Shown: in pieces, positions 4,257 to 41,244 of the stretch
How positions within the stretch are numbered: position 1 is the first letter of the stretch
Layout: every line of letters begins with the position of its first letter
Source of the DNA: a virus
IMG/VR virus record: IMGVR_UViG_3300025070_000024
Coordinates: 16,917-80,916 of that record
Reading direction: 5' to 3' (one strand)
Length of the DNA stretch: 64,000 bases
Notes under the pieces: model-generated
What the model saw: only the letters and a program-made list of their open reading frames with translations
Databases searched by the model: none
Told to the model about the DNA's origin: nothing
Position numbers and translations under genes: made by a program

Positions 4257-7200
4257 TCACCCCCTAGCAGTAGGTCTAACTTTCGCAGATATATCATACA
4301 AATATAATCCAATACCATCTTGACCGCTATCGCTACTTTTTATATACAATCGAATTACAGCATAGTCAGATTGTATACGCCTTTGCTCATACCACTCCAA
4401 TGTGCTACTAATATTAGTAGTAATCAGCTCCAAGTCTTCAGTCAAAAAAGGAAGAGATCTATCAGCAACAAGATCCCTAAAGCCATTAAAGTGCCAGCGT
4501 TCATGAGTGTGCCGCAAATTGTGTCCTGTAGTAAGACCTTCAGGAACAACTAAGTCGATAAACCCGCTGCAGTGCGTATCTGTATACACCAACGCTTTAG
4601 TGAAGGTATTTTCATAGTGAGTAAATCGCTCTTCTGGAAAAGACACAACACGAGTGTCCCAGTTAAAGCTGCTAAATACTCCTGATTGCCCTATCGGTGA
4701 TGGAGCATCAATTGTAGACTCATGCACTACCCCGTGAAACTTTCCAAAGGTGCCTGCTTGATTGTGAAACTTAGCAGAACGCACTTGTGGAGATAGAGTA
4801 CCATCGATATTAATATTTCGAACGCGCAGAGCATACACAGTATTCAGACCTTCTAACAAAGCTGTACTGTCATAGGTATGTCTACTAACCCACGCTTGGT
4901 TCAAGTAGCTGTAACTAATGAATTCATCTTTAGATTCAATACCTGCATTCTCATTGTACTCATCTTGAGTGTCGATTAGATAGCCTGCACTAAAATCTCC
5001 TGTGTAATCTGCGTTTCTGATTAAGAGTATAACTCTATCGTACCGAGAATCATACGTAGCATGAAGGCCTGGGAAGAATTTGAAAGTATTAGAGGAAGAG
5101 AAAGTTGTATCTAGTTTCAGTTTTTCCTGAAACCAATCTTTCATTCCAGACCTACTAATTTCTTTCAGGTCTGTTCCTGCTAAAGAAAAAACTTTGCGTT
5201 GGTCTGCGTCAACAAAGAAATACCCATGAGGCGTTAAAACACAAGATAGCAGATGTTGTGTGCCTGCATAGCCTTTATCGCTGGGTCGTATCTCTACAGG
5301 TTTTGTAGCCAATATGTCTGATTGACCTAAAGCTAGCTCTCCTGCTGTAGTCGATATCTTCTCCTGACCTTGAGTCATAAATAACCCCCGCTCATGGTGA
5401 ATAATAAGACGATCACCATAACCTTGAAGATTTTCAATCTCGCCACGGTCACGCTGCATATCAAAAAACTCTATGGGCTTAAACGCGATAACGTTTGTAG
5501 ATACTCCTAAAGACCCAATTTCACTACTGCGGACAATCCGATGGGGAAAATTATTTACGAATGTTTGCCCACTGCTAAAGATTCCTACAGGCTGATATAC
5601 ATTTTCTGCATACAACCGTGACGGGTAATCATATAGTTGATCATTACCAGGGCTAGCAGCTCTAAAAACATATTCGTTAGCTGATAGATTGACAGGATTG
5701 TCTAACTCATAGTTCAGATACTCGAACTTAGTGCGACCCTGAACCCTGTAATTGTATACTTGCGAAAGAATACCACGAGTAGAGTCTACGGTTGTGACTC
5801 GATTAGTACTTAGTAAATCAACAAGTTGCGTGGCATTGTTTCCGTTCGCTACAGCATCAACACCTACAGGAGCTGTTAGCCTATGCTTATAGAAACTCCT
5901 TACAATATCCCCAGCAACAAATGTGGTATCTATGCTACCTACATTAACAGATTCCCCATCAATTTGACCCAGCTCTGCAGAAGCTAATTTAGTGTAGGGA
6001 ATCACTCCTGTACACGCTACTAAATCTTGTGCAGCATAATTTTGGTAACAGGTAAATAGATGCTGTTTCAGATTTGTAATCCATATCGGATTCGAAGCCT
6101 GCGCTCCTGTATGTCCTGCAGTTAAGTTGCTGTTGATTCTAAAACCTGTGCCTGGATTCGAGGTGTTCCCTAAGTGCGTACCACTGGTGCTTTTTAAAAA
6201 GTCTTTCCAGTCTGTACTGCTTGTCGAATTCGCATATTCAATGTTAAACCCTATACAAGTCTCACAAAACCTATTGTCAATTTCTAACTCATCATCGATA
6301 GCGTTCGTTTCAACGTATCGGACAGTGCTGACCTTTCTGATTCGTACATTATTAGTAAGACTTACCTGCCTTCCATTCTCAGGAAAGAAAGCTTTGCCTC
6401 CTACCGTAAGGGCATTTGGAGCATTAAGTATATCTGAGTCACCCCAGTAACCATTGTCTGAATTATTAGTTACAAGACCATCTCCTATAAGCCCTACTTC
6501 ACCAGTAGAACTTAAACCATAATCAATCCTATAATCGATGTTTTCAATGTAAGCCGTTTCAGGAAGATTTACTCTAGACCGCAATGCCTCAAAGCAGTAC
6601 ATCCTACCCGTGGTTTCCTTTATCCCCGCAAACCAAGCATCATTATTAAGCTGGTCTGTCGCACTAGATATCGTGTCTATGTCAGAAACTTCTTGAGAAT
6701 TGTACTGAGGCAAGTTCATACCATGAGAACTTGTATAGTCATGGTAATCAGTTACAGTTTCAGCAATGTTAGAGTAGTGATTGTAGCTGCCATGAATCAA
6801 AATACTCTGTCCAATATGCAGACTATTGGTCAAATCTCTTTTAGCATGAAACATTCGTACACCTACGTACCCCGCAGGCATAGGAACATTTGCAAACCGT
6901 ATCCGCACTAAATCTGTAGCATCGCCCAGTATTGGGATTTTGTGATGACGAACTGGCTCACTAGCAAGAGTGTAGTCTGTAATACTGCCGGAGTTATCAG
7001 AAGTATCTTCTACGGTCCATTGCTGAACAGGGAAGTTTGAAGGATACGTTTCTGCAGAGTTTTCCCAGTAACCGCAAACACCTACGCCACTTGTCACACC
7101 AGTAGGAGTGTAAGCACTTGCATCTCCAAAGTACTCATGGGTATTCCGGGTATGGAAATACTTCATACCACTAACAGCTATATCGTTATCGTCTTCGAGA

Positions 7201-9205: not shown

Positions 9206-9660
9206 TTTTTAAAATTCAAGTATGCAAACTCATCTTCTCGTAGTTTTTTAACCAATGCTTTTTTATTTCCTGCAGCCCCTGCCGTAGGAGAAAACGTGTA
9301 TACACTCTTGTTCTTTACCATACATCTGTGCTTGTCCCAATTCCATCTGAAGTAGTAATCATCCGTGTAGTAGATAAGCTTGTTTATCCCTTCTTTCTTC
9401 AGCTTGTTAGTTTCATGCCAATCAATTGTGGGCTTATTAAATGACCTAGGAATACGCTTTATGCGGATCGTACCTAATCTATGCCCCATATTAAATACCC
9501 TGCCATCTAAAATAACTTTAGAAAGTTTCTTGTTAAACTCCGAAATGATATGCTTGTACAAAGCATAAGTAACGGGTGTTGTAGGGTTGTTCTTACAATA
9601 AGACTTGTAGGAATCCTTAGTGCTATATCTACTCTCGCAGCTGTACTTCGTCGTTGTCAT
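9202..9660 (-). CDS. Conserved crAss-like-type small virion-block protein
   Basis: This is a 152-residue basic protein. The central block LGTIRIKRIPRSFNKPTIDW, followed by a YYTDDYYFRWNWDKHRC segment, is a pattern I recognise from the morphogenesis blocks of crAss-like and related phages. It sits between ring-type proteins there too. The function is unknown. The start overlaps the end of the upstream gene (9629), and the stop overlaps the next ATG. Confidence 0.6.
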   Translation of the reverse strand: MTTTKYSCESRYSTKDSYKSYCKNNPTTPVTYALYKHIISEFNKKLSKVILDGRVFNMGHRLGTIRIKRIPRSFNKPTIDWHETNKLKKEGINKLIYYTDDYYFRWNWDKHRCMVKNKSVYTFSPTAGAAGNKKALVKKLREDEFAYLNFKK

Positions 9661-38914: not shown

Positions 38915-39583
38915 ATGTTAATACATCAAGTAATTATCTTACGAGGTCTGCCCGGTGCCGGTAAAACTACCGTGGCTTCTACCTTAGCATTAGCGTCACG
39001 TGGTACAATATGCTCTGCTGACCAATACATGGTTGACAGCAATGGCGAGTACCACTTCGACCCAAAGCGACTGAAAGATTGTCATAACCTCTGCTTCGAT
39101 AAATTCTGCAAAGAGTTAACCAATGCAGTTCAAGACAAGCATTACGACCTTCGTAATCAGGCGTACACTATCATTGTAGATAACACCAACACTCAGTATT
39201 GGGAGTTCCAGAAGTATATCAACAAAGTAGCGAACGTGAATCTTCTGCTGAAAGAACTCGGCTCTAGCGACAAATTCATTGTTACTCAGCTCATCGTCGA
39301 GAATCCATCAGGATTTCAGTCTACACATGATGTTCCTAGTGCTACTATCGCCGCGATGAAAGACCGGTTTGAGGTTTATTTAGGTCCAGACCATCAGCTT
39401 AGTGACTGTCAGGAAGAACAGGTTCAAGAACATCCACCTTACGAAGAAGACGAGTGTGTAGGGTGTGGCAATTTGTATGATGTCAATGACCCACATTGTG
39501 AATGCACTGATCGCGAGGAGCAAGCTCAGGCTATGATGACCGAAGACATGCAAGATTCTATAGACCCTGACTATGATGAATAA
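38915..39583 (+). CDS. AAA_33-type polynucleotide kinase-like protein with zinc ribbon
   Basis: This is a 222-residue protein. The P-loop GLPGAGKTT is at residues 11-19, then CSADQYMVDSNGEYHFDPKR (about 34-53), and IIVDNTNTQYWEF (about 88-100). This order matches the AAA_33 / N4BP2-like kinases that phosphorylate 5'-OH ends of RNA or DNA. A C-terminal CVGCGNLYDVNDPHCEC cluster forms a putative zinc ribbon. With the 2H protein it could restore broken RNA ends, the 2H protein opening the cyclic phosphate and this kinase adding the 5'-phosphate. No ligase is visible in the window. Other nucleotide kinase roles are possible. Confidence 0.7.
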   Translation: MLIHQVIILRGLPGAGKTTVASTLALASRGTICSADQYMVDSNGEYHFDPKRLKDCHNLCFDKFCKELTNAVQDKHYDLRNQAYTIIVDNTNTQYWEFQKYINKVANVNLLLKELGSSDKFIVTQLIVENPSGFQSTHDVPSATIAAMKDRFEVYLGPDHQLSDCQEEQVQEHPPYEEDECVGCGNLYDVNDPHCECTDREEQAQAMMTEDMQDSIDPDYDE

Positions 39584-39596
39584 GACTCTAACTAAA

Positions 39597-39893
39597 ATGA
39601 GTAGTAGACAGATTCAACACATCTTACGTGATGAGCTTAGGAATCAAAAGCTCAAGCACAGGTCTATGGCATATTTAGCTGACCGGCATCTGTCAGAACT
39701 AAAGAAGTATGCAGCCCTTAAAAACTTTGAGCAAATAGATATTCAATCTCGTTTGCACTCTGAATTTTGCCGAGAGCAACATATATCTAGTGTTGAAATC
39801 ACGCGTTTAGAGAAAGAGCTGAAATATCAGCAACCTGCACCCAACAGAGTTGCTAAGTTTGTGATGAAACTTAAGATGAGGTTTAACCTATAA
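39597..39893 (+). CDS. Small helical hypothetical protein
   Basis: This 98-residue protein beginning MSSRQIQHILRDELRNQKLK is helical and basic with coiled-coil character and a final FVMKLKMRFNL. A longer start at 39573 overlaps the kinase end, and the later ATG is used. It is the last gene before a long non-coding stretch. No family is recognised. Confidence 0.5.
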   Translation: MSSRQIQHILRDELRNQKLKHRSMAYLADRHLSELKKYAALKNFEQIDIQSRLHSEFCREQHISSVEITRLEKELKYQQPAPNRVAKFVMKLKMRFNL

Positions 39894-39930: not shown

Positions 39931-40144
39931 GTAACACGGGGTTTGACTGTGCCTTGTTACCCAATTCAGTTACTATCTAAAAGTCCTACGCTAATCAATC
40001 GTAGGCATTATTTATCAGTCAAGCAATAGTGTACGTGTTACCGCTTGATGTATAGACCACGTACCTGTCCCAGCTTGGACAGCTTAGTCATAGTTAGAGG
40101 GGGTGTAGCTGTTAGTGACGACTACGGTCTCAGTACACCCCTTC
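39931..40144 (+). ncRNA. Multi-stem structured RNA element with possible pseudoknot
   Basis: Together with the tRNA-like fold this fills the 368-base gap between 39894 and 40261. Stems seen are GTAACA/TGTTAC (39931-39936 and 39955-39960), CCTACG/CGTAGG (39985-39990 and 40000-40005), CTGTCC/GGACAG (40065-40070 and 40077-40082) and an 11-pair stem 40097-40107 with 40134-40144. Two more stems interleave: TCAAGC/GCTTGA (40019-40024 with 40043-40048) and GTACGTG/CACGTAC (40031-40037 with 40058-40064). That is the order of an H-type pseudoknot or a two-state switch. No open frame covers the region convincingly. It could be a leader of the 40262 gene or an independent RNA. Confidence 0.5.
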
Positions 40145-40150
40145 CATTTC

Positions 40151-40232
40151 AGCACAGTCAGGTTTGATAAGCATTTCATTTCATCAGAATGGATTACAAA
40201 ATGCTTATGTGGTTCAATTCCACACTGTGCTC
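40151..40232 (+). ncRNA. tRNA-like structure (non-canonical)
   Basis: A seven-pair acceptor stem AGCACAG/CTGTGCT joins 40151-40157 with 40225-40231. A perfect T arm, TGTGG-TTCAATT-CCACA, covers 40208-40224. Where D and anticodon arms should be, there is no D stem. Instead a nine-pair stem TAAGCATTT/AAATGCTTA (40168-40176 with 40199-40207) carries a shorter inner stem CATT/AATG and a seven-base loop. This resembles the tRNA-like end of tmRNA more than a tRNA. A strongly decayed tRNA (possible anticodon loops ATCAGAA or TCATCAG) is the alternative. CCA is not encoded. Confidence 0.5.
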
Positions 40233-40261: not shown

Positions 40262-40777
40262 ATGGATATCAGCAAAACAAAGTTCATTAAGAACCTAGTG
40301 TTCAAACAGAGAAGCTACATCGAAGGAGGCAAAGTGTCTTACGGTGACAACCAGAGACACATCAACTATCAAGCTTGGCTTCACCTTCCAAACAAGTACA
40401 AGCTCTCAATTATCACTGGCCCTGTTGGGACAGGACTAAAATCTGTTCCTAACGTCTATGAAATTGGGTTCTTCTCTTCACTTCATGGAGAGATGATTAA
40501 GGCACACAAAGAGGTGTACTGTTTCACCAACAAAGAAGGTGTAGAGAAGGAAGTTATTGACTACGATAGCACTGCTGGCTACTTCACTCTTGAAGGGCTT
40601 GAAGAATACCTCGTAGAGATTAGTGGGCGTCCAACTCGTACCATCGAAATGGAGATCGAAGAGGGTTACCTCTGTTCAGTACATAAGACAGAGTTAGAAT
40701 ACTCTACCAATAGCCAAGTAATGGAACGCGTGTGTCCTAAATGCGAACCTGGACTCTTTAAATCTGAAGCCGAGTAA
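40262..40777 (+). CDS. Hypothetical protein with C-terminal zinc-ribbon-like motif
   Basis: This is a 171-residue protein. The ATG at 40262 (MDISKTKFIKNLVFKQRSYI) is preferred over an upstream GTG inside the structured region. The middle has mixed alpha/beta sequence. The C-terminus has a C-x2-H and C-x2-C pair (CSVHKTELE and RVCPKCEPG), a likely zinc ribbon. The long structured region directly upstream may control its expression. No family is recognised. Confidence 0.55.
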   Translation: MDISKTKFIKNLVFKQRSYIEGGKVSYGDNQRHINYQAWLHLPNKYKLSIITGPVGTGLKSVPNVYEIGFFSSLHGEMIKAHKEVYCFTNKEGVEKEVIDYDSTAGYFTLEGLEEYLVEISGRPTRTIEMEIEEGYLCSVHKTELEYSTNSQVMERVCPKCEPGLFKSEAE

Positions 40778-40779
40778 TC

Positions 40780-41244
40780 ATGAAAACTATTAAAGAAGAT
40801 ATCTTTTTAGGATGGACAGCAGGTGAACTAGCTATAACATACAAAAGGGCAGCGCTAGATGGACCAACCATCAAAGCACCTGAGCATACTATCAAACTAC
40901 TACGTAGATGCTACTCAGATACTATTGAGATACGTGAGTCAGCTATATGCATAGGTATATCCCGCGCTAATAGAATACGCTCAGTATTTATAGTAGGGGA
41001 AGGCGGTACAGCCGGATGCGTGATTGACCCTAAGCTAGTATTCAGCAGACTGCTGCTAGAAAACTGCTCTGCCTTTATCTTATCTCACAACCATCCTAGT
41101 GGCAACACAAACCCTAGTATGGCAGATAAGAAATTGACACGTGATTTTCGAGCTTGTGGTAAAGTACTCGACATACCCTTGCTCGACCACATAATAGTCA
41201 CCGACAACTCACACTTCTCGTTTGCTACACACGATATGCTATAA
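40780..41244 (+). CDS. RadC-like JAB/MPN-domain protein
   Basis: This is a 154-residue protein. The JAMM metal motif is intact: SHNHPSGNTNPSMADKKLT, with H104, H106 and the D about ten residues on. It is followed by the family's FRACGKVLDIPLLDHIIV segment. This is the RadC/DUF2466 C-terminal domain without the N-terminal helix-hairpin-helix part. RadC-type proteins are often found on mobile elements and phages. The exact activity (isopeptidase, nuclease or other metalloenzyme) is unsettled. The start is one base after the upstream TAA. Confidence 0.8.
   Translation: MKTIKEDIFLGWTAGELAITYKRAALDGPTIKAPEHTIKLLRRCYSDTIEIRESAICIGISRANRIRSVFIVGEGGTAGCVIDPKLVFSRLLLENCSAFILSHNHPSGNTNPSMADKKLTRDFRACGKVLDIPLLDHIIVTDNSHFSFATHDML

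What the first reader, a model, noticed from the sequence alone, without database searches (positions are those of the whole stretch)
40151..40232. tRNA-like RNA with acceptor and T arm but a rebuilt middle
A seven-pair acceptor stem and a perfect T arm with a TTCAATT loop are present at canonical spacing from each other, but the D stem is missing and a nine-pair stem replaces the usual D/anticodon region. The layout is that of the tRNA-like end of tmRNA, but closed by a small loop. It is unlike the two normal tRNAs in this window. It could be a mimic recognised by tRNA enzymes, a decoy for tRNA-targeting nucleases, or a processing signal at the end of the structured RNA before it.
Basis: seen in the sequence. 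Interest (0 to 1): 0.75.

Follow-up and report, generated by a model that had tools for sequence, protein, structure and literature searches.

The report
Phage tRNA mimic lacking an anticodon
A crAss-like virus of bacteria carries a small RNA shaped like a transfer RNA but with no anticodon, usually placed just behind another folded RNA or just in front of a gene, so it probably tells the cell's tRNA-cutting enzymes where to cut the viral transcript.

Summary
The element is real. ARAGORN and Rfam do not recognise it. A descriptor scan of the window finds only this and the two true tRNAs, and nothing in 30 randomised windows.

Related crAss-like phages carry six further distinct copies. Helix sequences differ but pairing is kept (119 of 119 counted pairs); all keep GG and a TTCRATT T loop. 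The nine-pair stem shrinks to a 7-bp hairpin in one copy and is absent in another. No copy has a plausible anticodon.

Four of seven copies lie 3' of the same ~200-nt double-pseudoknot RNA ('X', also uncatalogued), one 3' of another non-coding stretch, two alone between genes. Four end 17-30 nt before an ATG.

Best explanation: a cis-acting RNase P/RNase Z processing site, working like mascRNA at the MALAT1 3' end or plant mitochondrial t-elements. Cleavage itself is inferred. It is not a tRNA or tmRNA. An anticodon-nuclease decoy is unlikely; a trans-acting mimic is not excluded.

The parts
40151..40232 (+). anticodon-less tRNA-like element (acceptor, mini D arm, plain stem, T arm, discriminator C)
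   Evidence: fold z -3.79; descriptor scan; conserved pairing in relatives
40151..40157 (+). acceptor stem 5' strand AGCACAG, pairs with 40225-40231
   Evidence: sequence; pairing kept in all seven elements over 6 pairs, three different sequences
40158..40167 (+). mini D arm TCA-GGTT-TGA with the GG that in tRNA meets the T loop
   Evidence: D-arm pairs kept in six elements
40168..40207 (+). nine-pair stem and apical loop in place of the anticodon arm; no conserved 7-nt loop
40208..40224 (+). T arm TGTGG-TTCAATT-CCACA
   Evidence: sequence; T loop TTCRATT in all seven elements
40225..40231 (+). acceptor stem 3' strand CTGTGCT; no CCA encoded, as in the window's own two tRNAs
39938..40141 (+). 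RNA X: ~200-nt structured RNA directly upstream. PK1 39938-39940/39960-39962 and 39945-39949/39967-39971; PK2 40020-40024/40043-40047 and 40032-40037/40058-40063; hairpin 40066-40070/40077-40081; 3' hairpin 40101-40106/40135-40140
   Evidence: homologues in L007, L006, L107, L102, L104 with covarying helices
40233..40261 (+). A-rich leader between the element and the next start codon
   Evidence: sequence
40262..40777 (+). 171-aa ORF of unknown function downstream (MDISK...), conserved in L006 and L007
39573..39893 (+). 106-aa ORF of unknown function upstream

Best explanation
The element is a cis-acting, anticodon-less tRNA mimic that works as a processing site in a long early transcript of a crAss-like phage. 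Step 1 (shown by sequence and comparison): the RNA forms an acceptor/T-arm stack with a reduced D arm carrying GG, that is, a tRNA-like elbow with a plain stem in place of the anticodon arm. Step 2 (inferred): host RNase P cuts before 40151 and host RNase Z cuts after about 40232, as for a CCA-less pre-tRNA. Step 3 (inferred): this gives RNA X a defined 3' end, releases an ~82-nt tRNA-like RNA, and leaves the downstream mRNA with a ~30-nt A-rich leader. It works like mascRNA at the 3' end of MALAT1 and like plant mitochondrial t-elements; it is not shown to be related to either by descent.
For: Seven distinct elements keep acceptor and T pairing, GG and TTCRATT, while the anticodon-arm equivalent ranges from 9-bp stem to a 7-bp hairpin to nothing. 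RNase P binds the T-arm/acceptor stack of any RNA that shows one and measures from the elbow (PMC4919913); mascRNA and menRNA, with a reduced D arm and two Gs at the elbow, are cut by RNase P and RNase Z (PMC11693755). Four elements follow RNA X (window, L104, L006 TLD2, L102), one follows another non-coding stretch (L106), two stand between protein genes (L006 TLD1, L103 mini). Four end 17-30 nt before an ATG. Where X lacks the element it is followed by a T run (L007) or another RNA (L107). Acceptor and discriminator bases differ between copies (A1-U72/C73 in the window, G1-C72/U73 in TLD2), arguing against one synthetase as reader.
Against: No RNA data: neither expression nor any cut was observed. 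The upstream X is absent in two copies and the spacing to X is ~80 nt in L102. No encoded CCA except perhaps L102, and RNase P of some bacteria prefers RCCA. In L102, L104 and L106 the T-arm and 3' acceptor sequence was part of the search pattern. Free-energy minima of the L006 TLD1 and L106 elements do not give the full cruciform.
Confidence: 0.6

Rival explanations
1. Uncleaved 3' domain of X: X and the tRNA-like end act as one RNA, the mimic protecting the 3' end or bringing X to tRNA-binding partners, in a layout reminiscent of tmRNA.
For: X is followed by such an element in four phages, two of them with a different element or spacing. X carries two pseudoknots.
Against: X occurs without the element in L007 and L107, and the element occurs without X in L006 TLD1, L106 and L103 mini. 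No tag reading frame or tmRNA match.
Confidence: 0.12
2. Trans-acting mimic: the released tRNA-like RNA titrates or misleads host tRNA-maturation enzymes or a defence system that senses the tRNA elbow or acceptor.
For: Elbow and acceptor are kept while the anticodon is lost. The element is exchanged among distant phages (93% identical between window and L104 while terminases are ~43% identical).
Against: Recurrent placement between X and gene starts points to a cis role. An anticodon-nuclease decoy needs an anticodon loop, which no copy has.
Confidence: 0.12
3. Cis-regulatory leader of the 171-aa gene (control of translation or mRNA stability by a tRNA-binding protein), without cleavage.
For: Four copies end 17-30 nt before an ATG; L006 keeps the element before the same gene.
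Against: The downstream genes differ (171-aa gene, unrelated ORFs in L104 and L106). L006 TLD2 and L102 are not directly before an ORF. L007 keeps the gene without the element.
Confidence: 0.08
4. Decaying relic of a tRNA or tmRNA gene.
For: A Crassvirales relative, phi14:2, carries a tmRNA-like gene, so raw material exists.
Against: Pairing is kept through sequence change and loops diverge more than stems; a relic would not recur in seven forms behind or before the same kinds of neighbours.
Confidence: 0.05
5. Chance fold.
For: None found.
Against: 0 of 200 shuffles as stable, 0 descriptor hits in 30 random windows, conserved relatives.
Confidence: 0.01

Closest known systems
mascRNA / menRNA (3' ends of human MALAT1 and MEN-beta)
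   Same: tRNA-like cruciform directly 3' of another non-coding RNA; reduced D arm with two Gs; longer stem instead of the anticodon arm; no linker bases at the four-way junction; acceptor and T arm kept (PMC11693755).
   Different: Phage, not eukaryote; no Rfam match to that family; processing not shown; occurs in variants down to acceptor + T arm only.
t-elements of plant mitochondria
   Same: tRNA-like structures punctuating transcripts; known ones are cut by RNase P and RNase Z, CCA-tailed and not aminoacylated (PMC11658184).
   Different: Here in a DNA phage, and often behind a dedicated structured RNA; processing and tailing not tested.
tmRNA tRNA-like domain
   Same: Acceptor and T arm, GG in a D loop, a plain stem instead of the anticodon arm.
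   Different: Closed by a small loop; no message domain, no tag, no G3-U70; has a mini D stem.
Phage RNAs cut by host RNase P (M3 RNA, C4 antisense RNA)
   Same: Phage non-tRNA transcripts processed by host RNase P (PMC11143913).
   Different: No sequence comparison made here; those were found singly, not as a tRNA-like family exchanged between phages.
GOLLD / ROOL large phage RNAs
   Same: As a comparison for X only: structured non-coding RNAs of phages, often near tRNA genes (own knowledge; cryo-EM paper listed).
   Different: X is only ~200 nt and matches no Rfam family.

Membership tests
tRNA | anticodon stem with 7-nt loop and anticodon | tested here: not met
   middle stem has no conserved 7-nt loop; it has a 3-nt loop in L006 TLD2 and is absent in L103 mini
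tRNA | match to tRNA models | tested here: not met
   ARAGORN and Rfam RF00005 do not call it in the window
tRNA | acceptor/T-arm stack with T loop and GG of the D loop | tested here: met
tmRNA | message domain with tag reading frame between the two halves of the acceptor | tested here: not met
   the acceptor closes on 82 nt; no ARAGORN tmRNA call, no Rfam RF00023 match
tmRNA | G3-U70 pair for alanine charging | tested here: not met
   position 3-70 is C-G in the window
mascRNA/menRNA | linker-free cruciform with reduced D arm, GG, long plain stem and T arm, 3' of a non-coding RNA | tested here: met
   searches compared with PMC11693755; a resemblance in architecture, not descent
mascRNA/menRNA | sequence/structure match to the Rfam family | tested here: not met
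   no match at E up to 10
mascRNA/menRNA | cut by RNase P and RNase Z, CCA added, not charged | not testable with these tools
   needs in vitro cleavage or RNA-end mapping
t-element (RNase P/RNase Z punctuation site) | tRNA-like structure at transcript boundaries between genes | tested here: met
   positions between genes or between X and a gene in all seven copies
t-element (RNase P/RNase Z punctuation site) | cleavage at the 5' and 3' ends of the tRNA-like fold | not testable with these tools
   no RNA data held

The most novel reading that the evidence does not exclude
A horizontally exchanged family of phage-encoded, anticodon-less tRNA mimics acts in trans, or as the functional 3' domain of RNA X, to divert host tRNA-maturation or tRNA-sensing machinery during early infection, rather than only marking cut sites.
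Probability: 0.22. Interest if true: 0.85.

Novelty: new variant of a known kind. Interest (0 to 1): 0.62.

Why it matters
I found no report of a dedicated family of anticodon-less tRNA mimics in DNA phages (open-licence literature only). It would be a phage parallel to mascRNA and t-elements, presumably reached independently. The natural size series, from a full cruciform down to acceptor plus T arm, makes the minimal needs of bacterial RNase P and RNase Z testable on natural substrates. It also marks arrays of uncatalogued structured RNAs (X and its neighbours) in crAss-like phages.

Tried and rejected
Blastn of the region against GenBank phages: no match; tblastn of the 171-aa neighbour: none. 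Rfam at relaxed thresholds on the window element: only chance matches, all on the other strand. On L006 TLD2 and L102: weak tRNA-Sec scores below gathering (24.7 and 15.1 bits against 47), which use another acceptor partner or force mismatches; not taken as membership. X plus element as a permuted or split tmRNA, because X starts GGGGTTTGACTG, rather like the start of tmRNA: rejected, since the acceptor closes on itself. Element as an N-terminal extension of the 171-aa protein (frame open in the window): rejected by the in-frame stop in L006 and by indels. Alternative genetic code suspected from ORF-free stretches in relatives: they are giant ORFs cut by locus ends. L105, found by the same T-arm pattern, is not a clear member (no middle stem; 25 bits, E 0.01, largely the searched motif). 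The pair statistic on the three closest copies alone is not significant (161 of 500 shuffles reach it); support comes from the divergent elements. X pattern in bacterial genomes: none. Terminase-based relatives (40 loci, many too short to hold the region) gave no further copies. Sigma-70 promoter and terminator scans were uninformative.

Full report
Observation. The 82-nt stretch 40151-40232 lies in a 368-nt gap between a 106-aa ORF (39573-39893) and a 171-aa ORF (40262-40777). The D stem is reduced, not missing: TCA/TGA around GGTT. No unpaired base separates the four helices. The RNA folds at -25.3 kcal/mol against -14.8 for shuffles (z -3.79). The minimum-energy fold borrows one T-stem pair for the acceptor; with the T arm enforced the cruciform with the D stem costs 1.8 kcal/mol more. 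A plain descriptor finds it and the two true tRNAs in the window, and nothing in 30 randomised windows. ARAGORN and Rfam call only the two true tRNAs; at E up to 10 Rfam gives no tRNA, tmRNA or mascRNA match here.

Where it lies. The window is part of an 80,916-base virus record. Its portal protein matches Crassvirales phages at about 34% identity. The element sits in a variable island of rightward genes next to the leftward structural-gene block. Directly upstream is a ~200-nt structured RNA, here called X.

Relatives. Four records carry an identical copy. Six further distinct elements were found. L006 TLD1 is in the same gene gap, 78% identical. L006 TLD2 follows an X copy inserted in the 3' end of the 171-aa gene, with only a 7-bp hairpin as middle stem. 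L104/L112 follows X. L106/L103/L108 follows a different non-coding stretch. L102 follows X with about 80 nt between, has a 4-bp D stem (ACTT-TGGT-AAGT) and ends CTGTGC-ACCA. L103 'mini' has acceptor AAGTATGA/TCATACTT, linker ATGGTTAACAA and T arm AGAGG-TTCGATT-CCTCT, and no middle stem. L104, L106 and L102 were found by a pattern covering only the T arm and the 3' acceptor strand, so their 5' acceptor strand, D arm and middle stem are independent observations. TLD2 and mini were recognised by their T arm plus acceptor, so for those two these helices are not independent. L105, found with the same pattern, lacks a clear middle stem and is left out. A covariance model built from the window, L104 and L006 TLD1 retrieves L106/L108 (39.2 bits, E 3e-6) and L102 (34.4 bits, E 5e-5) from 1.29 Mb; L105 scores 25 bits, mini 20.9 bits, and TLD2 is not retrieved. 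The T arm used in the pattern search accounts for much of these scores, perhaps 25 bits judging by L105.

Covariation. In a hand alignment by structure, all 119 sequence-pair cells are standard pairs, with 28 further pair types; shuffling 3' strands among elements gives a mean of 81.5 and a maximum of 104 in 5000 trials. For the five most different elements it is 83 of 83 against a mean of 52. Shuffles ignore relatedness and the alignment was made by structure, so this is strong but not a formal probability. The three closest copies alone are not significant. GG lies in the loop of the small D arm in six elements and in the linker of mini, and the T loop is TTCRATT in all seven.

RNA X. X homologues occur in L007 (92.6% identical over 203 nt), L006, L107, L102 and, for the 3' two thirds, L104. 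Two H-type pseudoknots and two hairpins are kept while sequences change: PK2 stem 2 is TACGTG/CACGTA, CAAGTG/CACTTG, CAATCG/CGATTG or GTACGT/GCGTAC. X moves: it lies before the element in the window, inside the 3' end of the 171-aa gene in L006, and near tRNA genes in L007. In L007 it is followed by a T run and in L107 by another RNA, without the tRNA-like element. The terminase of L104's phage is about 43% identical to the window's while the elements are 93% identical, so these modules are exchanged between phages or very strongly conserved.

Mechanism. The constant parts are the acceptor/T stack, the T loop and GG, the features read by RNase P and RNase Z (PMC4919913; PMC11693755). The variable or absent part is what stands in for the anticodon arm. 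Positions are 3' of structured RNAs and, in four copies, 17-30 nt before an ATG. I therefore think the element is a processing site: RNase P at 40150/40151 trims X, RNase Z after 40232 frees a short A-rich leader for the 171-aa gene. Shown: fold, conservation, positions. Inferred: both cleavages and their use. Charging is unlikely: no anticodon, A1-U72 with C73 in the window but G1-C72 with U73 in TLD2, no G3-U70, so no shared identity. An anticodon-nuclease decoy is likewise unlikely. A trans-acting role and an uncleaved X-element RNA remain possible.

Comparison. The layout is that of mascRNA/menRNA: an RNA followed by a linker-free tRNA-like cruciform with a shrunken D arm (PMC11693755). 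The gene-punctuating copies resemble plant mitochondrial t-elements, which are cut, CCA-tailed and not charged (PMC11658184). It is not a tRNA, tmRNA or Rfam mascRNA member by the tests listed. Phage RNAs cut by host RNase P are known (M3 RNA, C4 RNA; PMC11143913), so the kind is known and this is a new variant. Paper searches returned no description of such elements in phages, within an open-licence library only.

Noticed in passing
window 39938-40141; L007 4332-4533; L006 5393-5585; L107 about 304-510 minus; L102 about 9220-9446 minus; L104: RNA X: a mobile ~200-nt RNA with two covarying pseudoknots, absent from Rfam, found in at least six phage lineages at different gene positions.
   Followed up: partly
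L006 5645-5935; L107 about 60-300 minus; L052 about 4440-4784 minus; L007 3727-3774: Further structured non-coding RNAs recur in arrays beside X in these phages (for example an RNA with TATAGTGCGGTGTTTCGCCGTGCTGCC).
   Followed up: no
L118 4031-4502 (Cellulophaga phage phi14:2, NC_021806): A cultured Crassvirales phage carries what looks like a complete tmRNA gene (ARAGORN tag GSSVQKLAMVA, Rfam 46.0 bits against gathering 47, G3-U70 present), not in its annotation.
   Followed up: partly
L118 1760-1849 (phi14:2): A tRNA-like sequence with D arm, long variable arm and T arm but an imperfect acceptor, not called by ARAGORN.
   Followed up: no
window 40262-40777; L006 5001-5393; L007 5001-5459: The 3' end of the 171-aa gene is an insertion spot: replaced by an X-tRNA-like-RNA cassette in L006 and running into a tRNA-Met in L007.
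   Followed up: partly
window 40780-41244: RadC-like JAB-domain protein encoded just downstream.
   Followed up: no
L105 3500-4100: A different phage with several degenerate tRNA-like pieces in a row, one sharing 21 nt of T arm and acceptor with the window element.
   Followed up: partly
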